Positions 22,239 to 57,517 of a stretch of 64,000 bases of DNA are shown here, in pieces (positions within the stretch are counted from its first letter, which is position 1; every line of letters starts with the position of its first letter). This stretch comes from Nilaparvata lugens (taxonomy: Eukaryota > Arthropoda > Insecta > Hemiptera > Delphacidae): positions 30,212,436 through 30,276,435 of the forward strand of contig NC_052509.1 in NCBI RefSeq assembly GCF_014356525.2. The letters are read 5' to 3'. A program made the translations under genes and the position numbers. The notes below the pieces were generated by a model. The model was not told the DNA's origin. It ran no database searches and was given only the letters and a program-made list of their open reading frames with translations.

Positions 22239-23237
22239 TGTGCCTGACCTTTTTAAAAGATGATAAAGAAGATAATTTTGAATAAAATTTAGAATTTAGA
22301 AATAGGCAGACACATCTAGAAAATACCTGAGTCTATACCTAATTCATGCAGGTGAACGGGCTAGAGTCAAGAAAACTTCAATCAATCTTGCCATGCCCAA
22401 TTTAATAGGTTCATACTATAGAATAACACTACAATTTGGAATAATTGAAAAATACAAACAGATTCAATAAGCATTGGCAACTAAAAGCGAACAACAGAAA
22501 CAACGATTTCATGTTACTTTGTTGACATTCTTCATCTGATTTGGGGGCGCATTACTATCCTTGGGGATAGGGGAAGTTGGTTTGGGGACACACATGAACC
22601 ACTTAGCGGTTATTTGAAGAAACAATTATTCGTACATGATGAAGAAACACAATTAAACCTTTCAGGACATGGCACTACCAGAAAATTTAAACTTAAATAA
22701 AAATAAAACTAGCTCCTACATTGACTAATGATATAAACTTGCCCAAAAATGGCGAAACATAATGACTACATCTTTACTCTCATAGTGCTCCTAGCAAAGT
22801 GTCCTCTGAAACGTAGTCTGGTCTCGCGGCTGGGGAATCGCCCCACTACTGTATTTAGAAACAGGTCTCCTATTGGGCGAAGGGAATCAATTTGACCAAT
22901 CGTCGCGTGGCTTCTAGAGCCTTTGGATCAAATAGTAACTGCAAAATCGGTAGTTTGTTATAATTTCAATGCTTGCTGTTTTCCAGCTTATTGCACTCCA
23001 TGTCGCGACAGGAAGGCTACGTTTTAGAGATAATTCCATAATCTACATTCCTCGACAACTCGGAGCCACAATTTTTGAATATCTATCATGGGAAACTCGA
23101 AGTCACGGCCGTTCATAATAGTTTATAATTTAAATAATTTATTTTGCTAACTCACAATAATGGCTCTAGTCTATTGCGTATTAAATTTACTATTATAACT
23201 TGGGAAAAGGCCTGAATTAAAAATAGTGCTCAGCACA
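22239..23237 (-). repeat. 3' LTR of the gypsy-like element
   Basis: Starts TGTGCTGAGCAC on the minus strand and ends ...GTCAGGCACA, the TG...CA form. It is collinear with the LTR at 43540-44736 apart from point differences and one internal deletion of about 190 bp near 22565, where the other copy has extra sequence. Confidence 0.85.
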
Positions 23238-23252: not shown

Positions 23253-23288
23253 GTGTAAAACACGCAAAAAGAAATCTAATCAGGATAT

Positions 23289-23464
23289 GTTACCATAGAG
23301 GCATTCTGTGTAATTTGAGAGTCAAATTTCTGGATTGATAGTAGGATCCAATTTGAAGCGGGCCCTCTTCAAAAGAAATCTCTTTAATCATTCCGAGATT
23401 CAGCAAAATATATAACTAATTGAGATTTGTGGCAAGAGTCTTCAAAACTGTGGCAAGAGTCAGG
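23289..23464. repeat. Left copy of a 176-bp direct repeat flanking Polinton B
   Basis: From GTTACCATAGAGG to GGCAAGAGTCAGG. It looks identical base for base to 37774-37949 and is in the same orientation. Outside it lies the 3' end of the retrotransposon; inside it begins the truncated left end of Polinton B. It includes a small internal repeat (GTGGCAAGAGTC twice). Confidence 0.93.
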
Positions 23465-23540
23465 TCAACCACACCCACCTCAAGGTCATCTAGGTCAACC
23501 AGACCTACCTCAAGGTCATCCAGGTCAACCACTCTAACCT
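23465..23540. repeat. Polinton B left terminal repeats (truncated)
   Basis: Two complete AAGGTCA-nnn-AGGTCA units and a partial one, inverse to the array at 37425-37720. The junction with the 176-bp repeat shares CAGG with the unit sequence, a possible microhomology. Confidence 0.85.
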
Positions 23541-23735
23541 CAAAAAAAAAAAAAAAAAAAAAAATTAAAAAAAAAAAAAAAATGAAAAAAAAAAAAAATA
23601 AATACCCTAAAAAAAATAAAAAAAATTGAAAAAAAAAAAAAATTGAAAAAAAAATAAAAATGAAAAAAAAAAAAAAAAAAAAATTAAAAACACATAAAAT
23701 GGAAAAAAGGGAAAAAAAGGGAAAAAAAATTCCCT
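23540..23735. repeat. A-rich tract, left arm
   Basis: Runs of A broken by single T or G, then a GGGAAAAAAA motif repeat. The inverse T-rich tract is at 37215-37416. Lengths differ between arms, as expected for slippage or for consensus error. Confidence 0.9.
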
Positions 23736-23753
23736 CCAGATCCTGAACTGGGG

Positions 23754-23761
23754 TATAAAAG
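23754..23761 (+). promoter_or_regulatory. TATA box of left POLB
   Basis: TATAAAAG in GGGGTATAAAAGGAG, followed by a leader of about 100 bp and a consensus splice donor at 23877. It is mirrored exactly at 37183-37190. The transcription start is not certain. Confidence 0.7.
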
Positions 23762-23876
23762 GAGTTGTTCTACAAGGAGTGGGACATTGTGTCTTGGGCA
23801 GTCGTGCCGTCAGTACGTGTGTGTGTGATTTTAGTATATTGGTTTTGGATCACTTTCATCTTTATCAACATCAAGA

Positions 23877-24859
23877 GTAAGTACCAGTGCATTTTATAGT
23901 TCTATATATTTATATTATATTCATGATTTAAAAATTAAGTTCAAAAGAGTAGAATTTTGAAGTAGTTTGAGACTGACAATTAAATTCTAAAATGACTTTA
24001 ATTCGAAAATGACAAGTTTAATAATGAATTAGGTTCCAATACATAGAGTACATGACATAGTCAAAAATGACTAGTGTAATTATGAATTAGTTCCAATACA
24101 TACAAGTTATGAGTTTAATTATGAATTAGGTTCTTTGAGTTGGTGGTTGTAATCCATCCTAACCTAAAAAACATATAATTACAAAGTAGATCCTAGACCC
24201 CCATTCACATTCCCCCATACAGCTCAAGACTATTATCCTTAGAACATAAACACCATAGAGTAAATGACATAGTCAAAAATGACAAGTTTAATTATGATTA
24301 GGTTCCAATACATAGAGTAAATGACTAGTCAAAAATGACTAGTGTAATTATGAATTAGGTTCCAATACATACAAGTTATGAGTTTAATTATGAATTAGGT
24401 TCTTCGAGTTGGTGGTTGTAATCCATCCTAACCTAAAAACGTATAATCATAAAGTAGATCCTAGACCTCCATTCACATGGTTGTAATTCATCCTAACCTA
24501 AAAACGTATAATCACAAAGTAGATCCTAGACCCCCATTCACATTCCCCCATCCCCACCCATCCCCATAAGTAGATCCTAGACCTCCATTCACATGATTGT
24601 AATTCATCCTAACCTAAAAACGTATAATCACAAAGTAGATCCTAGACCCCCATTCACATTCCCCCATCCCCACCCCACCCCACATACAGCTCCGGACCAT
24701 CATCCCTAGAACATAAACACCTATGAACCTCCATCCCCCGACCCACGATCCTAGATACTGATTCCACCTCTTCATCCCCCACATCCGTTGATAGTGATTC
24801 ATATATAGAGTTGAATACTGCATACCATACTAATACAATATTGTTTTGCATTGTTCCAG
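23877..24859 (+). other. 5' leader intron of left POLB, with internal repeats
   Basis: Donor GTAAGT at 23877 and acceptor TTGTTCCAG at 24859, with the POLB ATG as the first codon after the acceptor. Length 983 bp. The intron contains two to three imperfect copies of a block of about 100-150 bp (ATGAATTAGGTTCCAATACA; CATCCTAACCTAAAAA; AGTAGATCCTAGACC). The same structure occurs in the right arm (37049 down to 36061). Confidence 0.65.
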
Positions 24860-27800
24860 ATGAGCAAGGCTGCACGATGTCAGCAAACAGCAAACTCTGT
24901 GGACGAGTTTGTTGTCCTGGAGGAGGCATTCAAATCCCGACTCACGACTCTATACTACAATAATGCATACAAGGATGAGCCTGCCAAAGATTTCCACACC
25001 TTTCTGAGCAGTCTGAAGGATAAAATTGTTCACATCATCAGTCAACAACTGCAGACACATGGGGCAATGAAGTTCAATCTAGTATTGGAGGCAACATATT
25101 TCCGCAGCACCCTTGATAAGACCTTCTTCGATCAAGAAGAGTTTCAGAATGTTGCCTTCAAAACTCCAAACTACACCATCTTCAGTATCATCAATCTTCC
25201 AGACATCATCAACCAAGCGTGCATGACCCTACTGGATGAGGAGTCGAAATTTGAAGGAAATTCTAGTGGATGGAGTTTGCTTATCATTGATGGATTGCTC
25301 ATCAGGATTAGCAAACATACTCCCCTGCGTGGATCATCCTACATCAGTCTTCCACCTCTTCTATCAGCACGAAAGGCAATCATCAATCCTATAAACAAGG
25401 ACCAGCAATGTTTCAAATGGGCTATCCTCGCCAAACATGTACAAGGCAGTAATCCTCAACGAGTCAATGAGCGATACCATCAATTGGAAGAAACATACAA
25501 CTTTTCAGGCATTGGATTTCCCACTACCATCAACCAAATCGATATATTTGAGAAAGATAATCTGGAGGTATCAGTTAATATTTATGGTGTGGATGAGAAG
25601 AACGTTATATTTCCAAGAAGAGTTGGAAATGCAATGAAGGCAGATCACTTTGATCTTCTCCTCCTCTGTGAGAGTAGGATGATGATGAAAACAGCACCCT
25701 TGAGGATGACAATGAACATAAATCAAATAGCCACTACTGCTACATTAAAATTTTGAAAACTTGTAGATCCCAACTCACAAAACATCAGCATAAAATTATC
25801 ATCTGCAGACGATGTTTCACCCATTACACCCTCGACAGAGATGGAGAACGCAGGATGGCTGAGCATGAGGAGTATTGTGCTAGCAATAATACAGCAAGAA
25901 TCATCATGCCACAGGTTGGAAAAGATGGTAAACCTCCAACCTTGAAGTTTGAGAAACATGTGCAAAAGTATAGAGTACCTGTTGTAGCATACGCCGATTT
26001 TGAGTGCATCCTGGAGAAACCTGATGAAGACAATGAACAATGGATTGGTGAAGCTACCAAAGTTATCCAGTATCATCGGGCAATGAGTTACTGCTTATAC
26101 TTTGTGCGGGACCCATATTTGGAAGATTCCTGGCTGACAATCACTAACCTAATCCCTCATGAGCCGATTGTCTACAGGGGTCCTGATGCCGCCAAACATT
26201 TCATGAAGACCCTCACCATGTATGCAAAAGATTTAGATGAGGCAATTGACTGCAGGAATATCAAGTTGCTCCCACTAACCAAAAGAGAGAAAGAACGACA
26301 TAATGCAGCTGATTTCTGTGAGGCCTGCAATGAACGGTTCAATAAAGATAAGGTGTATGACCATTGTCATATAACTGGTATCTACCGGAATGCATTATGC
26401 CGTAAATGCAACCTGCAGCGAGAGCGACAATCATTCATACCAGTGTTTCTCCACAACTCTTCAAACTACGATACACACCTCATTATTCCAGAGCTGGGTA
26501 GAGATAAGGATCGGCTGTTTGTCATCCCAAACTCGTCGGAAAAGTATATATCATTCACCAAACGAATATCTCCAAAAATGCACCTTCGATTCATTGATAC
26601 ATTCCGGTTTACGCCTGATAGTTTAGACAATCTGGTCACCAACCTAGTCAAATCAGCATCAAATCCAGAAGACTTGTCCAAAGTGCTACCACATACTGCC
26701 AAGGTGTTTGGAAACAAATTGAGCCTTGTCTCAAGGAAAGGAGTGTTTCCATACGACTACTGTGATTCATGGCAGAGACTCGAAGAAACATTGCTACCAC
26801 CCAAAGAGGCATTTTTCAGCAAGCTGGTTGATAGGAGTGTTAGCAGTGATGATTATGAACATGCTCAAACTGTGTGGAACCAATTCAGTTGTAGAACTCT
26901 GGGAGAATACAGTGACCTATACTTGAAAACAGATGTTCTCCTGTTGGCTGATGTCTTTGAGAGCTTCCGCGATGTATGCATGAAGACTTATGATTTGGAT
27001 TGTGCTCACTACTTTACATCTCCAGGCTTTTCCTTTGATGTCATGCTGAAATATACTAAAGTCGAGCTTGAGCTCCTTACTGACTATGACATGTACATGT
27101 TTATCGAGCGAGGTATCAGAGGAGGAATAACAAATTGTATACACCGTCATGCTGTAGCCAACAATGCCTACACAGGAGCGCCTATTGACCCCGAGAAGCC
27201 TACATCATATCTCCTGTACACAGATGCGAACAACCTGTATGGCTGGGCAATGTGCCAACCACTTCCATGCCGGAAATTCCAGTGGATGGAGAAAGATGAG
27301 TTGGAGGGGGTGAGCAGAGGTATTGAGGGTGTTGGAGATGTTCAAAAGATTGGCTACATCTTGGAGGTGGACATTGAGTACCCTTCTGAATTGCATGATG
27401 AGCACAACGACTTCCCATTCCTGGCAGAGAACAAAAAAACTCTTAAATCTAATCATGTACGACTCATGACAGCTCTAAGCAACCGTGAACAATATATATG
27501 TCATTACCGCACCCTCAAGCAAGCAGTACAGCATGGATTGAGAATCACTAAAGTTCATCGAGGTGTAAGGTTTGAGCAGGAGGACTTCCTAGCACCCTAC
27601 ATCATGCTAAACACCAGACTTCGACAGCAGTCGAAGAATAAGTTTGAAAAGAACTTTTTCAAACTTATGAACAACACAGTTTTTGGCAAGACGATGGAGA
27701 ATGTGCGAAAAAGGATGAGTATGGAGCTAGTGAATGACGAGAATCGATTGAAGAAACTGATTGCTCGACCAGTGTACAAGGACCGCATCATCTTTGGTGA

Positions 27801-28808
27801 GAATATTGCGCTGTTACGATGCATAAGGAAAAAGTGGAGCTGAACAAACCTATATACATTGGTTTGACAGTGTTGGACATCAGCAAGACCCTTATGTACC
27901 AGTTCCACTATGATGTGATGAAACCTAAGTACAAAGAGAACCTGCAACTGCTTTATCAAGATACTGATAGCTTGTTCTACCTTGTCAAGACAGAGGACAT
28001 GTACAATGACATCATCAACAACCAACAACTGAAAGATGTCTTTGACACCTCAGAGTACCCTGCAGAGCACCCATGCTACTCAGATGGAAACAAAATGGTG
28101 CTTGGCAAGTTTAAAGATGAATATGCTGGCCGAGCGCCACTTGAGTATGTAGGCCTGCGATCGAAGCTATATGCCTGTAGGTGTTACAATAGTGATCCAA
28201 ATCAGCTGACAAGTGGATTGATAAAGAAAGCTAAAGGAGTGAGGAGACCAATACTTGGGCGAGAACTCTCAAAAATGCATCCAGATGCTGAACGTTACAT
28301 AGGCTTCCAAGACTATCTAGATTGTCTATATGGTGATGAGGATATCTATAGAGAACAAGTGATGTTTGGTACTAGGAAACATCAGATCATGACCCAAGTC
28401 ATGAGAAAGAAGGCATTGAGCAAAGCTGATGAGAAGAGGTATATTCTAGATGATGGAATTACAACTCTTGCACATGGACATTACAAGATCCCCACTCTAG
28501 CACACATTGATGAGGAGGCAGAGGAGGAGGATGAGGAGGAGGAGGAGGAGGATGAGGAGGAAGAGATGATTGACTCTCAAGAAATTCCCAAGGTTCAGGC
28601 AGCTAGCAGTACTACAACAGCTAAACGGCTACATTCCTCATCACATGATGAGCTCATTGATAAAGTCAATGAGTCAGGAAGCAGTACTATCCCTGCTAAA
28701 CGATCACGTCCCTTATCAAATGATGAGCTTGCTGATATGATCAATGACTATAAAATAGATGGTGATGCATCTCAGTATAGCATACTGAGAAAATTGCTTG
28801 AAAAGTGA
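24860..28808 (+). pseudogene. Polinton B POLB, left-arm copy with single-base deletions
   Basis: This is the protein-primed family B DNA polymerase of Polintons, with the same domain order as the right-arm copy. Compared with that copy there are four one-base losses within about 90 bp (GGG to GG near 25678; three A-run losses between 25745 and 25766) and one T lost in ATTT near 27808. There is also an extra in-frame TTC near 25132. All five frame-changing losses are in short homopolymers. Between them the frame is open: 24860-25756, 25753-27843 and 27819-28808. YADFEC (Exo I), TDANNLYGWAM (motif A) and QDTDSLFY (motif C) are intact. The start is the ATG after the splice acceptor, not the upstream TTG. 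It may be a real pseudogene or a consensus-error victim. Confidence 0.9.
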
Positions 28809-28951
28809 CGTCATACCTCATGCCAGGAAGTGTCAACAAATCCACTATGCATACAATCTGTGCACATGTCTTCACCATACATTCGCATCGCAAGACTTTT
28901 TGGAAGCGGTCATCATCAGTTGAGGTCTGTGCACCATGCTGTAAAGACGCC

Positions 28952-29095
28952 GCCCATCACCCCACCACCGCCACCAGTCAGCCCACCATCGTCACCAGTC
29001 GCCCCACCATCACCACCAGTCAGCCCACCATTGTCACCAGTCGCCCCACCACCGCCGCCAGTCGCCCCACCACCGCCGCCAGTCATCCCACCGGC
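28952..29095. repeat. 21-bp Pro-codon tandem repeat, left arm (inner arm limit)
   Basis: CCACCACCGCCACCAGTCGCC-type units downstream of POLB. The inverse repeat is at 31765-31965 with more units. Arm similarity ends in this repeat. Every frame through it gives a low-complexity peptide (PPPPPV, TTAASRP, GGGGAT), so I do not call it a gene. Confidence 0.85.
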
Positions 29096-31764
29096 CGAGG
29101 CCAAGACGGCTTCAATTTTGTAGTAGCCCTCATCACACCAATCAGTTAATATTGAATGTATAACCATTGTAATATGATAATAAAGAAATAAACCCTCATT
29201 GGCTGATCCACTGTCTAAAACTACTCTCATGTAATGATGTAAACATGTATGAAATAAACCTCATTTTATATGTTAACCATTGATTGAGAGTTTCATTAAT
29301 TCATATAGGTAGAAAATCACCTTACTTTACTTTAGGCGACCCCACTCCAACTCCCTCTGTCACATGACCAATGGCCACCAGCATTAAGATGCTCTAGCTC
29401 AAGATGGTCATGCAGGACCTATCACTCTACATGGTCATGGAGACCTATCACTCCAGATCAATATGTCCATGGTAGACCTACTAGATCAAGATGTCCATGA
29501 AGACTCTAGATCAACATGACCATGCTGCTCTAGAGATCAAAATGGCATTGAAGATAGATATTTTCAACGACTCCCACTCCATGCTCAGACATGACATATT
29601 TTCAATGACCCTCACTCCTCCTGTCACATGTCTGTATGGTATAATTGGGTCGTCCACTCAGTGGTCAGTCAGTCAGTTCAATTACTGTTCAGTTACTGAT
29701 CAGTCATTGTTCAGTCACTGTTCAACTGTTCAATTACTGTTCAGCTATACAATTACTGTTCAGTCACTGATCATCACTGTTCAGTCACTGATCAGTCACT
29801 GTTCAGTTACTGATCAGTCACTGTTCAGTTACTGATCAGTCACTGTTCAGTTACTGATCAGTCATTGTTCAGTCACTGTTCAGTCACTGTTCAGTCACTG
29901 TTCAGTCACTGAACAGTCACTGATCAGTCTGATCAGTAACTGATCAGTTATTGATCAGTCACTGTTCAGTCACTGTTCACTTACAGCAAGCTGCAATGAG
30001 CTTGGACATAGTTGTTAGAGTATACATAGTATAGGAGTTAGAAGAAGGCTAGAATTGCTCATTATTGCAATCAAACAGGTATTTGTAGGAACAATAGTTA
30101 AGAGTACAAGGCACATCCTGCACTATCAACTCCTATAGTAAATTTCTCTTGGAAACATTTATGGATAGTCATATAGTGCTAACAAAGTAAAGTATTAGTG
30201 AGTTATGATATTATATGATGTTATGAATTGAAATTTATAAATTTATTAGAATAAATGGTTTTGTTTCAATTCAGAACTGGGATGAATCTGAATTCAGGTT
30301 CATGATCTGGGAATTTCTATCAGAATCGATGAATGGGAGAATACAAAAAAAAGGTACTTGGTAACTTCTATTCCATTTTAATAATTTCAGAAGCTGTACA
30401 GAGAACAGTGAGTATATTAAGTTAATATTGGATTATTCAATTTCATTTCAGTATAAGGCCGACGATTTTCATTCAAGAATGGAGCTGATATGACAGACAA
30501 TTCCACTTTAGTCAATATCTTTCAAGTTATATTACAACTTGAATTTCTACTTTTCTCATTCTATCACCCCAGCATCAAATTAATGCAATCGGTAGTTATT
30601 ATAATGAAATCATATAGAGCTCTAATTTTATACAAAATTGGCATTTCCAATAATGTTTTACTATGTATGGATCTCTCAATTAAGCTTTTCGCATTCAATG
30701 CATGAGTTGTAACAGTAATGTAGCAGTAGATTGCTGTTAGCGAAGTGTAGAACTAGATAATTTGCACCGCATATCCTGTTTCAATTTTGATAAGAGTGAA
30801 AGGAATAAACACTTCATAATAGAACAAATTCACACCTGGACTAAGAATAGAGTTCGCGGGAAATGATTCACACCGCATATATCCTGCTTTTATTTTTATT
30901 AGAGTGGGAGGTATAGAGGAAACATTGTTTTGTGTGAATGAGATAATAGGATGTTTTTCCTAATCATTGAATGGAAAGGATATGTGGTCAAGAAGTGGAG
31001 CAATTTTTAGAACAAGAAACCATAAACAGCTTTACTCGCAAACTTATTATTTATATACTTTTCTCATTGGAAATATACATATCGTCTCCTAACAATAAAG
31101 TCGGCTTATCCATAAGGAAATATCCTACACAATCCCGTTTTTTCATAGAAGGATGCTTCCTATTGTATTTACTATACCTTAAATGTCTAAGAGTGCTTAC
31201 TCTAGAAGTTGAAGGGTGTATGGAATAAGATGTACAACATATTTCTCTTGAAATAACACACTCTCTCTTTTATTGATACATAACATAATATATATAAACT
31301 GAGCATTCATATGAATAATATGATTATTTACATTACAATTCAATAGATTCAGTCCAATATATCGAGAACTATCCAGTGATATAATTCACCCAATCTATCA
31401 CTTATTTCGCAGAATCCTCTGCTGAATGAGAATTTCAAGATGGCTGCTCCCTCGCATAGGTCGGTATAGCTTGACACTTCGGCATCATGAAAGATGGATT
31501 TTAGTGTCTCTAGAAAGTTTTGAGCTGTTCCAAACGGTTCTGGTAGGTCCTTATCTCCAAACTTCAGAAATGGTTGTACAATCCATTGGTTGCTGGTTAC
31601 TAGTTGACAGTCTCCACACTCACACATATCTGCTCGCTCCACTGCAGGCTGATGTTGGCAGTGGTAGTGGTAACAGCAGGAGTACTAGCTGGAGTAGTAG
31701 CTGGAGTTCTAGTTGCAGCTGATGCTAGTTCTTCACAGCACTGTGCACAGACCTCAACTGATGA
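29096..31764. other. Unique centre (loop) of the Polinton B palindrome
   Basis: About 2.7 kb not duplicated in the arms. It contains AATAAA signals downstream of the left POLB (for example near 29180 and 29253), a 10-11 bp tandem array at 29655-29985, and otherwise AT-rich sequence with short ORFs. A 97-codon minus-strand ORF at 31349-31642 (start MERADMCECGDCQ) matches no family I know and could be chance. I see no integrase or capsid motif. Confidence 0.6.
29655..29985. repeat. 10-11 bp tandem array (CAGTCACTGTT / CAGTTACTGAT)
   Basis: About 30 imperfect units alternating CAGTCACTGTT and CAGTTACTGAT, often in pairs of about 21-22 bp. CAGTNACTG is itself a short palindrome, so each unit is self-complementary. 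Confidence 0.9.
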
Positions 31765-31965
31765 TGGTGGGGCGACTGGCGGCGGTGGTGGGGCGACTGG
31801 CGGCGGTGGTGGGGCGACTGGCGGCGGTGGTGGAGCGACTGGCGGCGGTGGTTGGATGGCTGGCGGCGGTGGTGGGGCGACTGGTGACGATGGTGGGCTG
31901 ACTGGTGGTGATGGTGGGGCGACTGGTGACGATGGTGGGCTGACTGGTGGCGGTGGTGGGGTGAT
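31765..31965. repeat. 21-bp tandem repeat, right arm (inner arm limit)
   Basis: The inverse of the left-arm Pro-codon repeat, with about three more units. A sequence of about 30 bp (GAGGTCTGTGCAC followed by CAGTGCTGT or CATGCTGT on the minus strand) borders the repeat on both sides, suggesting the tract grew within a duplicated segment. Confidence 0.85.
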
Positions 31966-32112
31966 GGGCGGCGTCTTTACAGCATGGTGCACAGACCTCA
32001 ACTGATGATGACCGCTTCCAAAAAGTCTTGCGATGCGAATGTATGGTGAAGACATGTGCACAGATTGTATGCATAGTGGATTTGTTGACACTTCCTGGCA
32101 TGAGGTATGACG

Positions 32113-35100
32113 TCACTTTTCAAGCAATTTTCTCAGTATGCTATACTGAGATGCATCACCATCTATTTTAGAGTCATTGATCATATCAGCAAGCTCATCA
32201 TTTGATAAGGGATGTGATCGTTTAGCAGGGATAGTACTGCTTCCTGACTCATTGACTTTATCAATGAGCTCATCATGTGATGAGGAATGTAGCCGTTTAG
32301 CTGTTGTAGTACTGCTAGCTGCCTGAACCTTGGGAATTTCTTGAGAGTCAATCATCTCTTCCTCCTCATACTCCTCCTCCTCCTCATCCTCCTCCTCTGC
32401 CTCCTCATCAATGTGTGCTAGAGTGGGGATCTTGTAATGTCCATGTGCAAGAGTTGTAATTCCATCATCTAGAATATACCTCTTCTCATCAGCTTTGCTC
32501 AATGCCTTCTTTCTCATGACTTGGGTCATGATCTGATGTTTCCTAGTGCCAAACATCACTTGTTCTCTATAGATATCCTCATCACCATATAGACAATCTA
32601 GATAGTCTTGGAAGCCTATGTAACGTTCAGCATCTGGATGCATTTTTGAGAGTTCTCGCCCAAGTATTGGTCTCCTCACTCCTTTAGCTTTCTTTATCAA
32701 TCCACTTGTCAGCTGATTTGGATCACTATTGTAACACCTACAGGCATATAGCTTTGATCGCAGGCCCACATACTCAAGTGGCGCTCGGCCAGCATATTCA
32801 TCTTTAAACTTTCCAAGCACCATTTTGTTTGCATCCGAGTAGCATGGGTGGTTTGCAGGGTACTCTGAGGTGTCAAAGGTATCTTTCAGTTGTTGGTTGT
32901 TGATGATGTCGTTGTATAGGTTCTCAGTTTTCACGATGTAGAATAAGCTGTCAGTATCCTGATAAAGCAGTTGTAGGTTCTCTTTGTACGTAGGTTTCAT
33001 CACATCGTAGTGGAACTGGTACATAAGGGTCTTGCTTATGTCCAACACTGTCAAACCAATGTAGATAGGTTTGTTCAGCTCCACTTTTTCCTTATGCATC
33101 GTAACAGCGCAAATATTCTCACCAAAGATGATGCGGTCCTTGTACACTGGTCGAGCAATCAGTTTCTTCAATCGATTCTCGTCATTCACTAGCTCCATAC
33201 TCATCCTTTTTTGCACATTCTCCATCGTCTTGCCAAAAACTGCGTTGTTCATAAGTTTGAAAAAGTTCTTTTCAAACTTATTCTTCGACTGCTGTCGAAG
33301 TCTGGTGTTTAGCATGATGTAGGGTGCTAGGAAGTCCTCCTGCTCAAACCTTACACCTCGATGAACTTTAGTGATTCTCAATCCATGCTGTACTGCTTGC
33401 TTGAGGGTGCGGTAATGACATACATATCGTTCACGGTTGCTTAGAGCTGTCATGAGTCGTACATGATTAGATTTAAGAGTTTTTTTGTTCTCTGCCAGGA
33501 ATGGGAAGTCGTTGTGCTCATCATGCAATTCAGAAGGGTACTCAATGTCCACCTCCAAGATGTAGCCAATCTTTTGAACATCTCCAACACCCTCAATACC
33601 TCTGCTCACCCCCTCCAACTCATCTTTCTCCATCCACTGGAATTTCCGGCATGGAAGTGGTTGGCACATTGCCCAGCCATACAGGTTGTTCGCATCTGTG
33701 TACAGGAGATATGATGTAGGCTTCTCAGGGTCAATAGGCGCTCCTGTGTAGGCATTGTTGGCTACAGCATGACGGTGTATACAATTTGTTATTCCTCCTC
33801 TGATACCTCGCTCGATAAACATGTACATGTCATAGTCAGTAAGGAGCTCAAGCTCGACTTTAGTATATTTCAGCATGACATCAAAGGAAAAGCCTGGAGA
33901 TGTAAAGTAGTGAGCACAATCCAAATCATAAGTCTTCATGCATACATCGCGGAAGCTCTCAAAGACATCAGCCAACAGGAGAACATCTGTTTTCAAGTAT
34001 AGGTCACTGTATTCTCCTAGAGTTCTACAACTGAATTGGTTCCACACAGTTTGAGCATGTTCATAATCATCACTGCTAACACTCCTATCAACCAGCTTGC
34101 TGAAAAATGCCTCTTTGGGTGGTAGCAATGTTTCTTCGAGTCTCTGCCATGAATCGCAGTAGTCGTATGGAAACACTCCTTTCCTTGAGACAAGGCTCAA
34201 TTTGTTTCCAAACACCTTGGCAGTATGTGGTAGCACTTTGGACAAGTCTTCTGGATTCGATGCTGATTTGACTAGGTTGGTGACCAGATTGTCTAAACTA
34301 TCAGGCGTAAACCGGAATGTATCGATGAATCGAAGGTGCATTTTTGGAGATATTCGTTTGGTGAATGATATATACTTTTCCGACGAGTTTGGGATGACAA
34401 ACAGCCGATCCTTATCTCTACCCAGCTCTGGAATAATGAGGTGTGTATCGTAGTTTGAAGAGTTGTGGAGAAACACTGGTATGAATGATTGTCGCTCTCG
34501 CTGCAGGTTGCATTTACGGCATAATGCATTCCGGTAGATACCAGTTATATGACAATGGTCATACACCTTATCTTTATTGAACCGTTCATTGCAGGCCTCA
34601 CAGAAATCAGCTGCATTATGTCGTTCTTTCTCTCTTTTGGTTAGTGGGAGCAACTTGATATTCCTGCAGTCAATTGCCTCATCTAAATCTTTTGCATACA
34701 TGGTGAGGGTCTTCATGAAATGTTCGGCGGCATCAGGACCCCTGTAGACAATCGGCTCATGAGGGATTAGGTTAGTGATTGTCAGCCAGGAATCTTCCAA
34801 ATATGGGTCCCGCACAAAGTATAAGCAGTAACTCATTGCCCGATGATACTGGATAACTTTGGTAGCTTCACCAATCCATTGTTCATTGTCTTCATCAGGT
34901 TTCTCCAGGATGCACTCAAAATCGGCGTATGCTACAACAGGTACTCTATACTTTTGCACATGTTTCTCAAACTTCAAGGTTGGAGGTTTACCATCTTTTC
35001 CAACCTGTGGCATGATGATTCTTGCTGTATTATTGCTAGCACAATACTCCTCATGCTCAGCCATCCTGCGTTCTCCATCTCTGTCGAGGGTGTAATGGGT

Positions 35101-36060
35101 GAAACATCGTCTGCAGATGATAATTTTATGCTGATGTTTTGTGAGTTGGGATCTTACAAGTTTTTCAAAATTTTTAATGTAGCAGTAGTGGCTATTTGAT
35201 TTATGTTCATTGTCATCCTCAAGGGTGCTGTTTTCATCATCATCCCTACTCTCACAGAGGAGGAGAAGATCAAAGTGATCTGCCTTCATTGCATTTCCAA
35301 CTCTTCTTGGAAATATAACGTTCTTCTCATCCACACCATAAATATTAACTGATACCTCCGGATTATCTTTCTCAAATATATCGATTTGGTTGATGGTAGT
35401 GGGAAATCCAATGCCTGAAAAGTTGTATCTTTCTTCCAATTGATGGTATCGCTCATTGACTCGTTGAGGATTACTGCCTTGTACATGTTTGGCGAGGATA
35501 GCCCATTTGAAACATTGCTGGTCCTTGTTTATAGGATTGATGATTGCCTTTCGTGCTGATAGAAGAGGTGGAAGACTGATGTAGGATGATCCACGCAGGG
35601 GAGTATGTTTGCTAATCCTGATGAGCAATCCATCAATGATAAGCAAACTCCATCCACTAGAATTTCCTTCAAATTTCGACTCCTCATCCAGTAGGGTCAT
35701 GCACGCTTGGTTGATGATGTCTGGAAGATTGATGATACTGAAGATGGTGTAGTTTGGAGTTTTGAAGGCAACATTCTGAAACTCTTCTTGATCGAAGGTC
35801 TTATCAAGGGTGCTGCGGAAATATGTTGCCTCCAATACTAGATTGAACTTCATTGCCCCATGTGTCTGCAGTTGTTGACTGATGATGTGAACAATTTTAT
35901 CCTTCAAACTGCTCAGAAAGGTGTGGAAATCTTTGGCAGGCTCATCCTTGTATGCATTATTGTAGTATAGAGTCGTGAGTCGGGATTTGAATGCCTCCTC
36001 CAGGACAACAAACTCGTCCACAGAGTTTGCTGTTTGCTGACATCGTGCAGCTTTGCTCAT
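32113..36060 (-). CDS. POLB: Polinton B protein-primed DNA polymerase B, intact
   Basis: An uninterrupted frame of 1315 codons from the ATG directly after a splice acceptor; an upstream in-frame TTG at 36069 lies within the intron end. Residues from that ATG: an N-terminal domain (1-300); a C2HC-type zinc motif (CRRC...H...C, about 317-340); Exo I YADFEC (near 379); an endonuclease VII-like CEAC...DHCHITG...CRKC motif (487-518); Exo II NSSNYD (near 535); Exo III YLKTDVLLLADVF (near 692). Then polymerase motif A TDANNLYGWAM (near 789), motif B KNFFKLMNNAVFGKT (near 930) and motif C QDTDSLFY (near 1035), and an acidic Glu-rich tail. All catalytic acidic residues are present. It would replicate a linear genome from a protein primer. 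It converges on the left-arm copy, and transcription of both would run toward the centre. Confidence 0.97.
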   Translation of the reverse strand: MSKAARCQQTANSVDEFVVLEEAFKSRLTTLYYNNAYKDEPAKDFHTFLSSLKDKIVHIISQQLQTHGAMKFNLVLEATYFRSTLDKTFDQEEFQNVAFKTPNYTIFSIINLPDIINQACMTLLDEESKFEGNSSGWSLLIIDGLLIRISKHTPLRGSSYISLPPLLSARKAIINPINKDQQCFKWAILAKHVQGSNPQRVNERYHQLEERYNFSGIGFPTTINQIDIFEKDNPEVSVNIYGVDEKNVIFPRRVGNAMKADHFDLLLLCESRDDDENSTLEDDNEHKSNSHYCYIKNFEKLVRSQLTKHQHKIIICRRCFTHYTLDRDGERRMAEHEEYCASNNTARIIMPQVGKDGKPPTLKFEKHVQKYRVPVVAYADFECILEKPDEDNEQWIGEATKVIQYHRAMSYCLYFVRDPYLEDSWLTITNLIPHEPIVYRGPDAAEHFMKTLTMYAKDLDEAIDCRNIKLLPLTKREKERHNAADFCEACNERFNKDKVYDHCHITGIYRNALCRKCNLQRERQSFIPVFLHNSSNYDTHLIIPELGRDKDRLFVIPNSSEKYISFTKRISPKMHLRFIDTFRFTPDSLDNLVTNLVKSASNPEDLSKVLPHTAKVFGNKLSLVSRKGVFPYDYCDSWQRLEETLLPPKEAFFSKLVDRSVSSDDYEHAQTVWNQFSCRTLGEYSDLYLKTDVLLLADVFESFRDVCMKTYDLDCAHYFTSPGFSFDVMLKYTKVELELLTDYDMYMFIERGIRGGITNCIHRHAVANNAYTGAPIDPEKPTSYLLYTDANNLYGWAMCQPLPCRKFQWMEKDELEGVSRGIEGVGDVQKIGYILEVDIEYPSELHDEHNDFPFLAENKKTLKSNHVRLMTALSNRERYVCHYRTLKQAVQHGLRITKVHRGVRFEQEDFLAPYIMLNTRLRQQSKNKFEKNFFKLMNNAVFGKTMENVQKRMSMELVNDENRLKKLIARPVYKDRIIFGENICAVTMHKEKVELNKPIYIGLTVLDISKTLMYQFHYDVMKPTYKENLQLLYQDTDSLFYIVKTENLYNDIINNQQLKDTFDTSEYPANHPCYSDANKMVLGKFKDEYAGRAPLEYVGLRSKLYACRCYNSDPNQLTSGLIKKAKGVRRPILGRELSKMHPDAERYIGFQDYLDCLYGDEDIYREQVMFGTRKHQIMTQVMRKKALSKADEKRYILDDGITTLAHGHYKIPTLAHIDEEAEEEDEEEEEYEEEEMIDSQEIPKVQAASSTTTAKRLHSSSHDELIDKVNESGSSTIPAKRSHPLSNDELADMINDSKIDGDASQYSILRKLLEK

Positions 36061-37049
36061 CTGGAACAATGCAAAACAATATTGTATTAGTATGGTATGC
36101 AGTATTCAACTCTATATATGAATCACTATCAACGGATGTGGGGGATGAAGGTGGTGAATCGGTATCTAGGATCGTGGGTCGGGGGATGGAGGTTCATAGG
36201 TGTTTATGTTCTAGGGATGATGGTCCGGAGCTGTATGGTGGGGTGGGGTGGGGATGGGGGAATGTGAATGGGGTCTAGGATCTCCTTTGTGATTATACGG
36301 TTTTTAGGTTAGGATGAATTACAATCATGTGAATGGAGGTCTAGGATCTACTTATGGGGATGGGTGGGGATGGGGGAATGTGAATGGGGGTCTAGGATCT
36401 ACTTTGTGATTATACGTTTTTTAGGTTAGGATGAATTACAACCATGTGAATGGAGGTCTAGGATCTACTTTATGATTATACGTTTTTTAGGTTAGGATGG
36501 ATTACAACCACCAACTCGAAGAACCTAATTCATAATTAAACTCATAACTTGTATGTATTAGAACCTAATTCATAATTACACTAGTCATTTTCGACTATGT
36601 CATTTACTCTATGTATTGGAACCTAATTCATAATTAAACTTGTCATTTTTGACTATGTCATTTACTCTATGGTGTTTATGTTCTAAGGATAATGGTCTGG
36701 AGCTGTATGGGGGAATGTGAATGGGGGTCTAGGATCTACTTTGTAATTATATGTTTTTTAGGTTAGGATGGATTACAACCACCAACTCAAAGAACCTAAT
36801 TCATAATTAAACTCATAACTTGTATGTATTGGAACCTAATTCATAATTACACTAGTCATTTTTGACTATGTCATGTACTCTATGTATTGGAACCTAATTC
36901 ATTATTAAACTTGTCATTTTCGAATTGAAGTCATTTTAGAATTTAATTGTCAGTATCAAACTACTTCAAAATTCTACTCTTTTGAACTTAATTTTTAAAT
37001 CATGAATATAATATAAATATATAGAACTATAAAATGCACTGGTACTTAC
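36061..37049 (-). other. 5' leader intron of right POLB
   Basis: Mirror of the left intron: donor GTAAGT (plus strand ACTTAC at 37044-37049) and acceptor just before the ATG at 36060. It holds the same internal repeat blocks. Confidence 0.65.
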
Positions 37050-37182
37050 TCTTGATGTTGATAAAGATGAAAGTGATCCAAAACCAATATACTAAAATCA
37101 CACACACACGTACTGGTGATACACACACGTACTGACGGCACGACTGCCCAAGACACAATGTCCCACTCCTTGTAGAACAACT

Positions 37183-37190
37183 CCTTTTAT
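37183..37190 (-). promoter_or_regulatory. TATA box of right POLB
   Basis: CTTTTATA on the plus strand is TATAAAAG on the minus strand, in the same context as the left arm. The leader between it and the splice donor carries an extra stretch of about 18 bp relative to the left arm. Confidence 0.7.
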
Positions 37191-37214
37191 ACCCCAGTTC
37201 AGGATCTGGAGGGA

Positions 37215-37416
37215 ATTTTTTTTCCCTTTTTTTCCCTTTTTTTCCCGATTTTATGTGTTTTTAATTTTTTTTTTTTTTTTTTTTTATTTTTTTTTTATTT
37301 TTTTTTTTTTTTTTTAATTTTTTTTTTTCATTTTTTTTTTAATTTTTTTTTTTTTTTTTATTATTATTTTTTTTTTTCAATTTTTTTTTTTTTTTTTTAA
37401 TTTTTTTTTTTTTTTG
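37215..37416. repeat. T-rich tract, right arm
   Basis: Runs of T with occasional A or C, the inverse of the left A-rich tract, directly inside the terminal repeat array. Confidence 0.9.
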
Positions 37417-37424
37417 AGGTTAGA

Positions 37425-37720
37425 GTGGTTGACCTGGATGACCTTGAGGTAGGTCTGGTTGACCTAGATGACCTTGAGGTGGGTGTGGTTGACCTGGATG
37501 ACCTTGAGGTAGGTGTGGTTGACCTAGATGACCTTGAGGTGGGTGTGGTTGACCTAGATGACCTTGAGGTGGGTGTGGTTGACCTGTATGACCTTGAGGT
37601 AGGTGTGATTGACCTAGATGACCTTGAGGTGGGTGTGGTTGACCTAGATGACCTTGAGGTTAGGGGTGGTTGACCTGGATGACCTTGAGGTTAGGGTGGT
37701 TGACCTGGATGACCTTGAGG
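37425..37720. repeat. Polinton B terminal 30-bp array of AGGTCA direct repeats
   Basis: Ten units of 30-31 bp. Each contains TGACCT-3 nt-TGACCTTGA, which on the other strand is TCAAGGTCA-3 nt-AGGTCA. The two hexamers and the TCA extension are the same in all ten units, while the 3-nt linker (GGA, AGA, GTA) and the 13-bp inter-unit stretch vary. TCAAGGTCA is the known extended half-site of FTZ-F1/SF-1/ERR nuclear receptors, and the arrangement is a DR3. A regulatory role is inference. Confidence 0.9.
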
Positions 37721-37721
37721 T

Positions 37722-37763
37722 AAAGGGCGACTCTGGCACACTTGTGTGCCAGAGTCGCCCTTT
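37722..37763. repeat. Perfect 20-bp hairpin at the right terminus of Polinton B
   Basis: AAAGGGCGACTCTGGCACAC pairs with its exact inverse across TT. It is followed by TTATACTACT and then the 176-bp direct repeat. It has no counterpart at the left end, which is truncated before this point. Confidence 0.93.
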
Positions 37764-37773
37764 TTATACTACT

Positions 37774-37949
37774 GTTACCATAGAGGCATTCTGTGTAATT
37801 TGAGAGTCAAATTTCTGGATTGATAGTAGGATCCAATTTGAAGCGGGCCCTCTTCAAAAGAAATCTCTTTAATCATTCCGAGATTCAGCAAAATATATAA
37901 CTAATTGAGATTTGTGGCAAGAGTCTTCAAAACTGTGGCAAGAGTCAGG
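37774..37949. repeat. Right copy of the 176-bp direct repeat
   Basis: Same length, sequence and orientation as 23289-23464. Beyond it the sequence (ACAAAACAATATGGGCG) is retrotransposon interior or an unknown neighbour. Confidence 0.93.
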
Positions 37950-43539: not shown

Positions 43540-44736
43540 TGTGCCTGACCTTTTTAAAAGATGATAAAGAAGATAATTTTGAATAAAATTTAGAATTTAG
43601 AAATAGGCAGACACATCTAGAAAATACCTGAGTCTATACCTAATTCATGCAGGTGAACGGGCTAGAGTCAAGAAAACTTCAATTAATCTTGCCATGCCTG
43701 ATTTAATAGGTTTATACTATAGAATAACACTACAATTTCAAATAATTGAAAAATACAAACAGATTCAATAAACATTGGCAACTAAAAGCAAACAACAGAA
43801 AAAACGATCTCATATTACTTTGTTGACATTCTTCATCTGATTTGGGGGCGCATTACTATCCTTCGTTTTAGATAGCAATATGTCACAAAAGCAAACAATA
43901 TCAGTCATGAAATAACAAATTAATTTCAATATGAGATTACTCAAGAAAGAAAAGAACTTTTACTGGTTGAATTTGGCTTGACGGTGACGTCCTCTTACGT
44001 CCCTAGACCTGTCGTCTGAACAGGTGTCTTGAAGTGGTGTTACATAAAGTTGCGGAACCAAAGGGGTGGTACATGGAGTTGGTTTGGGAGTACACATGAA
44101 CCGCTTAGCGGTTATTTGAAGAAACAATTATCTGTACATGATGAAGAAACACAATTAAACCTTTCAGGACATGGCACTACTAGAAAATTTAAACTTTAAT
44201 AAAAATAAAACTAGCTCCTACATTAACTAATGATATAAACTTGCCCAAAAACGGCGAAACATAATGACTACATCTTTACTCTCGTAGTGCTCCTAAGAAA
44301 GTGTCCTCCGAAACGTAATCTGGTCTCGCGGCTGGGGAATCGCCCCACTACTGTATTTAGAAACAGGTCTCCTATTGGGTGAAGAGAATCAATTTGACCA
44401 ATCGTTGCGTGGCTTCTAGAGCCTTTTGATCAAATAGTAACTGCAAAATCGGTAGTTTGTTATAATTTCAATGCTTGCTGTTTTCCAGCTTATCACACTC
44501 CATGTCGCGACAGGAAGGCTATGTTTTAGAGATAATTCCATAATCTACATTCCTCAACAACTCGGAGCCACAATTTTCAAATATCTATCATGGGAAACTT
44601 GAAGTCACGGCCGTTCATAATAGAGAGAGAAAATGATTTATTTCGCTAACTCACAATAATGGCTCTAGTCTATTGCGTATTGAATTTACTATTATAACTT
44701 GTGAAAAGGCCTGAATTAAAAATAGTGCTCGGCACA
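43540..44736 (-). repeat. 5' LTR of the gypsy-like element
   Basis: Starts TGTGCCGAGCAC and ends GTCAGGCACA on the minus strand. It is about 1.2 kb and collinear with 22239-23237 but retains the stretch of about 190 bp deleted there. Its first bases supply the false C-terminus (AEHYF and stop) of the interrupted PW-type frame. Confidence 0.87.
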
Positions 44737-45960: not shown

Positions 45961-46677
45961 TTAAAAATTTGTTATAAAAACATTTAAATTCACTCTATAC
46001 ATTCCATTATGTTTCTTACAGTCTGTAAATATAGAAACAAAGTAATGACTTCCCTTAGACCATACCTCTGTACACATGCTTTTAAATTTATTATAATCCA
46101 TATCAACATTAACAAAATCACAATAAACTAGTTTTAGATTTAAAGGATCCATTTTGAAAATCATCAGAATATTAGCATTATCTCTCAGTAAATGCTTTGG
46201 TATGCAAGCATAACTTTGAATAAGATAAAGCGTATTCACTCCATTATGTCTTCCGATTGAAAAATAGCTTTTTATTATTGGTAGGTTACTCGTTTGAAGA
46301 TCATCAAATATAACTAAGCTATCTTTCGCTATTTTGGCTGGATGCGGAATATTAATTGTATCACTCGATTTTATAAACTTAAGTCTGCTTAATTTAGAAA
46401 ATACTTAATCTAGAAATATGTATTTATCTTGTTTCAAACTTTTACTGAATAGATATAGATGTGTGAAGCTAAGTCCATCAGTATTAAAAATTAAATTCAA
46501 TACTAGATTCGATTTTCCACATCCTGATGGACCTACAATTAATGCTCTAACATTGCTAGGAAATAAACTTCCATGTTTATTTTTATTTTCCTGTTCAGTG
46601 GAACAAGAACTAACAACAAATTTATCAAAATCTACTATAGCTATCCATTTTTTTTAAAATATCTTTCTCTTCTACCA
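45961..46677 (-). pseudogene. Polinton A genome-packaging ATPase (A32/FtsK-like)
   Basis: The motor would pump DNA into capsids. Walker A is GPSGCGKSN near 46530. Walker B is SLVIFDDLQ (near 46320), followed by YFSIGRHNGVNTLYLIQSY, the sensor region typical of Polinton and virus packaging ATPases. Start ATG at 46677 (MVEEKDI). A run of eight A near 46650 puts the start out of frame with the rest (one base too many), and a TAA at 46405-46407 interrupts it in frame. End TAA at 45961. It lies in the minus-strand gene block. Confidence 0.85.
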
Positions 46678-46905
46678 TAATATTCTATGTTGCTAGTATG
46701 AAGGCTTCCTTACTACTGTTCAATCGATTATATGTGTACATACTCAATCAGACTAAACCAGCTTCATACATTATTCGAACTTACTCATACCTTTACAACT
46801 AGAGTAGCTTGGTTTAATTCAATAAATCAACATAGAATGAGAAACATTATACAGCATTTATTTTTGATAAATCTTTACAGAATTGAAGTATATAGTTTAT
46901 ATTCA

Positions 46906-48133
46906 TTAAATTTTAATATGGTATACAATAATCGAAAATTTGTACAATATCAACTTTTTTTTCAAACTTTTGTCGATGGTTATAATTATTTTACATTTAT
47001 TTATTTTCAACTTACAACTAATACATTTATTCCTTAAACCTCTACAAGTATTACTACTACTATTACAATCTATTTTCTCATTCAAAGCTAAATTATTTAA
47101 TAGTCTTATTCTCTCCTCAATTAACGAGTTCATCATGATTTCTGTAAAAAAGTTGATTTTATGGCTTATACAATATTGCTGACTCTCCACACATTTTCAT
47201 AGTCTCAAACATGAATCTTATCTTATCATTGTTTTCATCTGTTCTATCATCAATGAAATAACGCATTTGAATATTTAACCAGCCTAACGAATTACAGTAA
47301 CAAAATTCAGGGATTTCATTTAATTCACATCTTCGATGTCTTTCAGTTATATTTTTACTTATAATATAGCATACACTTATATGTTTTGATTTTTCTTCTT
47401 CACTTTTACCAGGTTTTATAAATGTTAAATATTCTTCAAGTGTTAGTCCTACTTTCCCAAATTTATTCAATTCAAATATTGTTTTGTCAACGAGTTCAAA
47501 GTAACAACACCTATATTTTTTATCGATTTTTATGAAAAATGGTTAATATCGAATGATTCCATCAGCAATCTGGAAATTAAACATATACTGTCAATCCTGT
47601 TCTAGCCCACTCCCATATGCACGTTCATAAAAAAAATTCCAGATAAGCTTATTTAATTGTTCTTTTGTTAAATGTTTATTCTTTTCTGTTATAATTTTTT
47701 TAATTCTATCAATGGATTCTTGTAGTTTTGAGCAATCACATCTCCACGAGTCCGGTAAATCCTTATCTATGTGAGTATTATATGTTGTACCATATAAATC
47801 ACAAACTAAAATATGATTATATTCATCACTATGCCAAACTCCTAATTTTTCATAGTCTCTCACAAATGTTAGATATTGTAGACTTGTCCATCCTTTTTCT
47901 GCTAATTGGTTCAATAACTCTTGATGCATCTCCAATAGCTCAGTTAGTTTACATCGATAACTCTGTATTCTCAGCATTTTCTCTAAAGAAACAGAATCAA
48001 ATTTACATAATTCATTAAAATGTCTCTTTAAAATATATACTGAGCTTATATATTCATCAAATGTTACTGTTTGACAGGTCATATCTTGAAAAATATCAAA
48101 CTGAAAGTCGTGATGATCAGCATATATAATCAA
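46906..48133 (-). pseudogene. Polinton A gene of unknown function
   Basis: One frame runs from 48133 (MIIYADHHDFQFDIFQDM) to 47159, broken only by in-frame stops at 47591-47593 (TGA) and near 47537 (TAA). It contains LTELLEMHQELLNQLAEKGW, WRCDCSKLQESIDRIKKII and NKFGKVGLTLEEYLTF. A further frame, 47190-46906, adds a Cys-rich stretch (CRGLRNKCISCKLKINKCK) that may be the true C-terminus after a frameshift or a separate small gene. I recognise no domain. It is positioned between integrase and ATPase on the same strand. Confidence 0.5.
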
Positions 48134-48750
48134 TTGTGAAATATTTTACTTAGTAAGTAATTGACTCTTATCTATCCAAGACAGTTCACTAAAACCGAGC
48201 CACTTCACGAGATAACGTTTACCAACTTTCTTCAATATTTTCTCTACAAGATAAACTTGCATTTCATCTAAAGTTAACTCAGATTCCTTTAATTCTTGTT
48301 CATAAAATTTACCTAAGATTTTTTCATTAATTGAATCTTCTAATTCATAATTATGTAGGTGGAATGCTTGCATAAACTGATATAACTTTATAAAGCTCCG
48401 GACTCCAATTAATTGTATAAGATTCATCAAATATAGCTCTTCGTTTACTAATTCTCACTATATCAATTATTTTGAAGTGAGGTTTGATTATCTTTTTACC
48501 CTTTGAAGCTTTCAATTTATGTTTATTCAACTCATTAAGAATTTGATGTTCATGTTTCTTTCTTACCTGAGAAGGCTTTAACTTTATGATGGAATGTACT
48601 GTATTATTATAATCTTTAACAATCTTATCTATTGAGTCAATCCATCTTAATGATCCAGTTATAGTAAAGTTTTTGTGTAATTTAGACTTAATAGTTCTAT
48701 TTAAATGTTCTACTAATGCAGCTCCTATATGTGAATAAACATTATAGTGA

Positions 48751-49689: not shown

Positions 49690-50207
49690 CATATTCTTTT
49701 GTAAGTTCGGAAACCTTTGCATAAAAAAACTCCTTCCCCATATCTGTTTGAAGATTTTTTAATTTAGGATCATTTTTAAAAATTAATTCCAATGCTCTAC
49801 TAACCTCTTCAGCACTCTTTGTTTTTAATTTTATTGCATAAGCAAATTTGGTAAATGCGTTCACAGCAGAAAGAAAATATTTATAATTATCATCAAATTT
49901 ATGCAAAGGAATCATTTCTACAATATCTGCCTGAATAAGATCATTAACACTCTTTATTTTATAACTTCTTCTCTGAAAGTTCTGATGTGCAAGTCCACAC
50001 CTTGTGCAAGCTGACTTACACCGTATACTAGATTATATTTTTTAACAAGGTTATAAGTACGTTTATTTCAGTTAAGTTCAACTTTGCTAAATCAGGTTCT
50101 CTTTATCTTTAATGTTTTCGAACTCACTTCTCACTTCAATACCAGTTCATGTACTTCCTTCTAGCAAGGTTACGTAACTAACTGGTTTTCCTTGTTTTGA
50201 AAGTAGA

Positions 50208-52884: not shown

Positions 52885-52915
<31 letters not shown>

Positions 52916-54353: not shown

Positions 54354-54390
54354 CAACCAAAGTTTTGATTTGAATCATAGTGTTCATCTG

Positions 54391-57515: not shown

Positions 57516-57517
57516 CT

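What the first reader, a model, noticed from the sequence alone, without database searches (positions are those of the whole stretch)
23465..37773. A palindromic, POLB-only Polinton: inverted arms of about 5.6 kb around a 2.7-kb loop
Both arms carry the same terminal repeats, TATA box, leader intron and full POLB, in opposite orientation, with no integrase or capsid gene anywhere between. Ordinary Polintons are 15-20 kb with one POLB and short-to-moderate TIRs. Protein-primed linear replicons such as adenoviruses are known to throw off palindromic, end-duplicated defective genomes, and this looks like such a genome caught in a chromosome. One arm keeps an intact polymerase, so a self-replicating minimal element is conceivable. 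Small real differences between the arms (extra leader segment near 37110, unit number in the Pro repeat, different outer ends) argue against a simple inverted-read artefact.
Basis: partly seen in the sequence, partly recalled or inferred. Interest (0 to 1): 0.92.

Follow-up and report, generated by a model that had tools for sequence, protein, structure and literature searches.

The report
Palindromic Polinton keeping only its polymerase
In the brown planthopper genome, a virus-like jumping element has shrunk to little more than two mirror-image copies of its DNA-polymerase gene, and it has spread as a unit to many places, probably by borrowing the insertion enzyme of its complete relatives.

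Summary
In detail: inverted arms (23461-29092, about 31829-37773) surround a 2.7-kb loop, the right arm has an open 1315-codon POLB, and homology searches find no integrase, ATPase, protease or capsid gene between. It is neither an assembly artefact nor a one-off. The host is Nilaparvata lugens. Part of the loop has 11 other full-length copies in the genome (97-99%); short probes put element arms on both sides of 10 of 11, and the one copy whose ends I read has (AGT)2/(ACT)2 ends, 11.15 kb apart, and a perfect 6-bp target duplication. A second POLB family has independent palindromic POLB-only elements, two with perfect 6-bp duplications. A full-gene-set relative carries POLB at both ends, and its inner edges match the window's loop. 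Best reading: an internal-deletion derivative of a Polinton whose terminal repeats had grown to include POLB, a replicase-carrying satellite probably mobilised by integrase in trans. This copy has one canonical end and one broken end joined by 4-bp microhomology, with an aberrant 172-177-bp target duplication inside a host repeat whose other copies show the empty site. Replication, trans-integration and packaging are inferred.

The parts
23288..23464 (+). left copy of the duplicated host target (part of a dispersed host repeat); last 4 bases CAGG shared with the element
   Evidence: 100% identical to 37773-37949; other scored genome copies at most 98% identical
23461..29092 (+). left arm; outer end truncated inside the 30-bp array
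31829..37773 (-). right arm, ending in a canonical Polinton terminus
23461..23543 (+). left remnant of the 30-bp terminal tandem array (2.8 units)
23754..23760 (+). TATA box of the left POLB promoter
   Evidence: read
23877..24859 (+). putative leader intron (GTAAGT ... CAG directly before ATG)
   Evidence: read; not tested with RNA
24860..28808 (+). left POLB, broken into three ORFs at homopolymer runs
28957..29092 (+). Pro-rich coding tandem array downstream of POLB, left (6.5 units)
29093..31764 (.). loop; edges homologous to the inner edges of a full Polinton's inverted repeats; part 30404-31700 has 12 full-length genomic copies including this one
31349..31684 (-). C-terminal part of the small gene following the right POLB; protein-level match to C6b
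31765..31973 (-). Pro-rich coding tandem array, right (10 units)
32113..36060 (-). right POLB, one open frame of 1315 codons, Endonuclease_7 plus family-B polymerase
32755..33064 (-). divergent tract inside the right POLB (91.9% to the left arm, 83.4% to C6b); reads as a gene-conversion tract
36061..37049 (-). putative leader intron, right arm
   Evidence: read; not tested with RNA
37185..37191 (-). TATA box of the right POLB promoter
   Evidence: read
37414..37721 (-). 30-bp terminal tandem array, 10.2 units
37722..37763 (.). terminal hairpin (19 pairs, 4-nt loop); in four ends of the family 7 pairs change on both sides, 1 on one side, 2 have an unpaired cell
37768..37773 (.). canonical Polinton end motif (ACT)2
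37774..37949 (+). right copy of the duplicated host target (base 37773 is shared with the end motif)

Best explanation
This is one copy of a dispersed family of POLB-only, palindromic mini-Polintons in Nilaparvata lugens. Step 1 (inferred from relative C6b): the terminal inverted repeats of a full Polinton grew inward past POLB, so that both ends carry terminus, hairpin, 30-bp array, promoter, leader intron and POLB. Step 2 (inferred from the loop edges): the unique middle with INT, ATPase, PLA2/minor capsid, PRO and DJR capsid was deleted. Step 3 (shown by the ends of the C1 copy): the palindrome inserted as a unit with the usual 6-bp duplication. The likely working mode is a satellite that makes its own protein-primed replicase and borrows integrase, and perhaps capsids, from full Polintons in the same genome; the long inverted arms would let each displaced strand fold into a panhandle that restores a double-stranded terminus, and would let one POLB copy repair the other. 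In this copy only the right end was joined in the canonical way; the left end had been lost inside the 30-bp array and was joined by 4-bp microhomology 172-177 bp away, giving a long direct duplication (aberrant, one-ended integration).
For: Same centre: 12 of 45 matches to window 30404-31700 are full length, the window included. Of the 11 others, 8 have inverted arms on both sides, 2 more (C14, C16:7893398) have a rearranged second arm, and 1 (C1:29096640) had no second arm at its probe (one side was taken from POLB hits for C7, C14, C16:7893398 and C3). The C1 copy, 63592126 to 63603278, has AGTAGT and ACTACT ends and GGAGAG on both sides. The window's right end shares its hairpin with C6b, C14 and the C1 copy: 97.4% of cells paired, 7 of 19 pairs changed on both sides, 0 of 500 shuffles reach the covariation score. 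C6b: full gene set between inward POLBs, arms 98.4-99.3% identical, 95% to the window, inner edges matching both loop edges. Single insertion: identical 177-bp host repeats; 8 of 8 other host-repeat copies examined run unbroken across both boundaries, 5 of them over at least 770 of 777 bases. POLB constrained: arm-to-arm dN/dS 0.22; 23 of 40 codon differences synonymous against 10-12 expected (codon 299, beside a frame gap, dropped there but kept). Independent family: C3 and C15a, TSDs TAAGTG and AATCGA, centre shared also with C15b.
Against: No replication, transcription or mobility was measured. The 11 other loop copies were probed with short pieces, not read end to end (C14 in part), so their lack of other genes rests largely on spacing (C1 copy: 4.1 kb and 5.7 kb outside the loop piece). 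C6b's left outer repeat is in a 2500-N gap, so POLB in both repeats is shown only for the inner 3.9 kb. Outside the divergent tract the synonymous excess is weak (8 of 18, P 0.05-0.16). Several copies have one arm shortened, so two full POLBs are not required. In this copy the left POLB is broken and the left end is lost, so this copy itself may be dead. Hairpin symmetry in DNA can also be kept by copying one strand from the other, without selection; the C1 end has one mispair and one G-U pair. The order 'long repeat first, deletion second' rests on one relative.
Confidence: 0.75

Rival explanations
1. One reading: a one-step, adenovirus-like end-duplicated (snap-back) defective genome that integrated by chance.
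For: Palindrome of one end around a loop; this copy's left end is broken and its integration is aberrant.
Against: Part of the centre recurs in 11 other places with arms, with a canonical 6-bp duplication in one; loop edges match both inner edges of a full element; the arms are not copies of one arm. A one-step origin followed by spread as a unit is not excluded.
Confidence: 0.14
2. Assembly or library artefact (inverted chimaeric reads or a mis-join of two insertions).
For: Single assembly; the left arm carries many one-base homopolymer deletions, typical of poorly polished long reads; N runs lie in or beside three of the six other pairs fetched.
Against: Flanks are not mirrored; direct 177-bp host duplication with a consistent empty site; real substitutions between arms; the same centre at 12 loci.
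Confidence: 0.03
3. Two separate Polintons inserted or recombined tail to tail in the chromosome, later trimmed.
For: Arms differ and one has a foreign tract.
Against: One shared target duplication and one empty site for the whole unit; the same centre elsewhere between canonical ends.
Confidence: 0.04
4. Ordinary Polinton with very long terminal repeats, simply decayed here by loss of its middle; no separate mobile lineage.
For: C6b shows such a full element.
Against: The deleted form itself recurs with a shared 1.3-kb centre, 97-99% identical, at 11 other sites, and one has its own canonical insertion.
Confidence: 0.08

Closest known systems
Polintons/Mavericks (polintoviruses, Eupolintoviridae, adintoviruses)
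   Same: POLB with endonuclease VII domain as in insect Mavericks (PMC5803895, passages seen); (AGT)2//(ACT)2 ends and 6-bp TSD as in vertebrate Mavericks (PMC8097293, passages seen).
   Different: No integrase, ATPase, protease or capsid gene found; POLB in both arms; arms of 5.6 kb against 46-1,447 bp in intact vertebrate Mavericks (PMC8097293).
Galileo 2-TIR and recombinant-TIR copies (Foldback-like DNA transposons)
   Same: Terminal repeats that extend inward; chimaeric arms (PMC3573991, passages seen).
   Different: Galileo's longest-TIR copies lack the transposase gene; here the long arms retain a replicase gene.
Palindromic adenovirus defective genomes and symmetric recombinants
   Same: Two copies of one end in inverted orientation in a protein-primed replicon (recalled; the listings gave no usable paper).
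   Different: Integrated and multicopy with canonical Polinton junctions; a full relative already carries POLB at both ends.
Bidnaviridae
   Same: A small replicon that keeps polintovirus POLB and terminal repeats (PMC4061559, passages seen).
   Different: Bidnaviruses have parvovirus-type capsid and helicase genes (PMC4061559); no capsid gene found here.

Membership tests
Polinton/Maverick | Protein-primed family-B polymerase gene | tested here: met
   PF03175 in a left-arm ORF and in both arms by genome search; 221 homologues, many of the 120 listed from insects. Protein priming itself not testable
Polinton/Maverick | (AGT)2//(ACT)2 or related end motifs | tested here: met
   Right end of this copy and both ends of the C1 copy with the same centre; this copy's left end is lost
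Polinton/Maverick | 6-bp target-site duplication | tested here: not met
   This copy has a 172-177-bp duplication. Met in the C1 copy of the same family, GGAGAG
Polinton/Maverick | Terminal inverted repeats | tested here: met
   5.6-kb arms
Polinton/Maverick | Retroviral-type integrase gene | tested here: not met
   tblastn and Pfam: none found, so it is filed as a non-autonomous derivative, not a complete Polinton
Polinton/Maverick | Capsid, protease and packaging ATPase genes | tested here: not met
   none found
Adenovirus-type palindromic defective genome | Extrachromosomal linear palindrome made in one replication error | not testable with these tools
   needs DNA from insects; a multicopy centre argues against a one-off
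Full Polinton with POLB-bearing long inverted repeats (C6b type) | Same repeat and inner boundary | tested here: met
   arms 95% identical; inner edges match; C6b's left outer part is in a gap

The most novel reading that the evidence does not exclude
Replicase-only Polintons are a recurrent, living class: palindromic linear replicons that encode little recognisable but their protein-primed polymerase, copy themselves outside the chromosome from two hairpin-tipped ends, and parasitise the integrase of full Polintons; they arose in at least two POLB families of one insect and may outnumber complete elements there.
Probability: 0.3. Interest if true: 0.88.

Novelty: new variant of a known kind. 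Interest (0 to 1): 0.72.

Why it matters
Many reduced transposons lose the enzyme and keep the ends. Here the ends have absorbed the replicase and the other known genes are gone. That separates the two halves of Polinton biology (replication and integration/packaging) in nature, gives a natural test of whether Polinton POLB acts on its own DNA, and offers a route by which protein-primed linear plasmids and bidnavirus-like replicons could emerge from Polintons. It also warns annotators that POLB genes are not a proxy for complete Polintons. No paper describing palindromic or POLB-only Polintons appeared in the listings (open-licence papers only).

Tried and rejected
Rejected: assembly artefact (mirrored flanks expected, not seen); a capsid gene in the left loop edge (MCPVI E 0.038, below cut-off, in a Pro-rich frame); the right-end palindrome as a foreign MITE (it is the terminal hairpin, shared by C6b, C14 and the C1 copy). 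Led nowhere: viral contigs with P0001 and A1, phages, the 30-bp unit in viral contigs, homologues of the loop ORF, PDB sequences. Genome contigs gave six MAG contigs with distant POLB relatives, used only as gene queries. The dN/dS script on the second family stopped after 8 of 21 pairs on an N-containing codon (0.25-0.36 in 7 pairs, 0 in one pair with a single difference); not repeated. Genome counts are lower bounds, because the tool scored 91 of 1716, 40 of 503 and 40 of 290 first-look candidates.
Full report
Where it is. The window is G000:C6:30212436-30276435 of a 1.085-Gb assembly. One of its contigs, C7, has the same length (65,058,112) as the contig that carries Nilaparvata lugens LOC120352187, so the host is the brown planthopper.

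The structure. Inverted arms run from 23461 to 29092 and from about 31829 to 37773 around a 2.7-kb loop. Aligned, they show 5333 identical columns, 91 substitutions and 17 gaps. Right POLB is one open frame, 36060 to 32113. Left POLB lies in three ORFs broken at homopolymers; one-base losses are far commoner in the left arm (10 against 1 before the Pro array), so some of these breaks may be consensus errors. TATA box, leader intron and ATG are alike in both arms (read by eye). No INT, ATPase, PRO, PLA2 or capsid gene was found in between, though the same queries find them in another Polinton at 46-63 kb (the DJR query and one PLA2 query came from that element itself).

The ends. The right end reads ...TTTTTATACTACT, the (ACT)2 motif reported as commonest in vertebrate Mavericks (PMC8097293, passages seen). 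Just inside it is a 19-pair hairpin. Three other ends of the family in this genome, C6b, C14 and the C1 copy, have the hairpin with changed stems. In the first three ends 5 pairs changed on both sides and none on one side; with the C1 end added, 7 pairs change on both sides, 1 on one side, 2 have an unpaired cell, and 97.4% of cells pair. The left end lacks all this and starts inside the 30-bp array.

The insertion. Host sequence 23288-23464 is repeated exactly at 37773-37949. It belongs to a dispersed host repeat; the other scored copies are at most 98% identical (40 scored of 503 candidates, two of them the window's). Flank, repeat and flank joined in a script align unbroken across both boundaries in 8 of 8 other copies fetched, 5 of them over at least 770 of 777 bases. 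So the whole structure entered one repeat copy and duplicated 172-177 bp, the range reflecting a shared T on the right and a shared CAGG on the left. One normal junction plus one microhomology junction with a long duplication is what one-ended integration of a molecule with a broken end would leave (inference).

Not alone. The loop segment 30404-31700 has 12 full-length matches at 97-100%, the window included, and 22 loci match only its outer 550-580 bases. I probed the 11 other full copies for arms (C14). Eight have arms on both sides in inverted orientation (for C7 and C3 one side rests on the POLB hit); C14 and C16:7893398 share a rearranged second arm; C1:29096640 had no match at its second probe. 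In several, one arm looks shortened, as the probes land further out than expected. C14's outer arm is cut off at 16253911. The C1 copy is bounded: AGTAGT at 63592126, ACTACT ending at 63603278, GGAGAG on each side, 11,153 bp; its interior was probed, not read through. Thus a palindrome with this centre has inserted as a unit in the ordinary Polinton manner.

Where it came from. C6b (C6:3.247-3.267 Mb) is 95% identical to the arms and has POLB facing inward at both ends, with DJR capsid, PRO, PLA2, ATPase and INT between. Its left inner edge matches window 28961-29303 at 85%, its right inner edge matches the protein at 31481-31624, and a 36-base piece from just upstream of its INT occurs inverted in the loop. 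This fits inverted repeats that first grew past POLB and then lost the middle. The outer part of C6b's left repeat is in a 2500-N gap, which leaves this step less than proven.

Twice over. A second POLB family in the same genome has its own palindromic elements with POLB reading outward: C15a (17.2 kb, arms 8.0 kb, TSD AATCGA) and C3 (20.2 kb, arms 8.4 and 10.6 kb, TSD TAAGTG), sharing their centre with C15b at 93-97%. No INT, ATPase, PRO or capsid homologue was found in C3, C15a, C15b or C1720, and the middle pieces L025 and L022 of C15a and C1720 hold no closed ORF of 100 codons. Of 85 POLB genes merged from 92 scored matches, 14 lie in 7 inverted pairs within 21 kb and 2 in one same-strand pair. 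Two of the seven pairs, C6b and C13, belong to full-gene-set elements; C13 is 24 kb with TSD GCTACT and 1.8-kb terminal repeats that reach into POLB. So most POLB genes in the list are single: eight single POLB hits checked are 88-98.7% identical to the window's arms, one of them being C14.

Is POLB used? Arm-to-arm dN/dS is 0.22, and 23 of 40 codon differences are synonymous against about 10-12 expected (codon 299, beside a frame gap, dropped there). Most of the signal is in a tract at 32755-33064 that the right arm seems to have gained by conversion. Outside the tract the excess is weak (8 of 18, P 0.05-0.16). Between POLB copies of the second family, two of which (C2, C12) are not known to be palindromic, most ratios are 0.25-0.36 (8 of 21 pairs computed). 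This shows constraint in the history of these genes, which could predate the deletion.

How it likely works. Shown: structure, ends, hairpin covariation, multicopy centre, canonical ends and duplication of a sister copy, no integrase found here and integrase found in relatives (C6b, C13, the second Polinton of the window). Inferred: protein-primed copying from both ends, panhandle rescue through the long arms, integrase in trans, possible packaging by full Polintons. Not shown: any activity today.

Novelty. Polintons, extended terminal repeats in other transposons and palindromic adenovirus genomes (the last recalled) are known. Palindromic POLB-only Polintons that spread as families were not found in the listings, which cover open-licence papers only.

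Noticed in passing
window 46018-62895: A separate Polinton lies about 8 kb to the right: ATPase 46560-46018, INT 48746-48354, broken POLB 53613-50325, PLA2 59787-60065, protease 60371-60703, DJR major capsid 61867-62895.
   Followed up: partly
window 48797-49689: A near-perfect palindrome with arms of about 446 nt and almost no loop (97.9%) directly beside the integrase fragment of that Polinton.
   Followed up: no
window 22239-23237 and 43540-44736: A 94-97% direct repeat on both sides of the element, 21 kb apart; probably two copies of one host transposon.
   Followed up: no
window 32755-33064: A 310-bp tract in the right POLB about 8% diverged from the left arm and 17% from C6b, with codon frame kept: probably a conversion tract from an unsampled POLB lineage.
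   Followed up: yes
L001-L006: Six contigs in bacterial MAGs carry Polinton-type POLB, with PLA2-integrase and protease genes in L003 and an ATPase in L004: probably eukaryotic virus contigs misbinned as bacteria.
   Followed up: partly
window 177-2116 and 55388-57522: A 246-copy (AACATTTA)n array and a 4.9-copy 436-bp tandem array.
   Followed up: no
L030/L032 (C13:31257609-31281952): A 24-kb Polinton with integrase, ATPase, protease and capsid genes whose 1.8-kb terminal repeats reach into POLB: a possible intermediate in terminal-repeat growth.
   Followed up: partly
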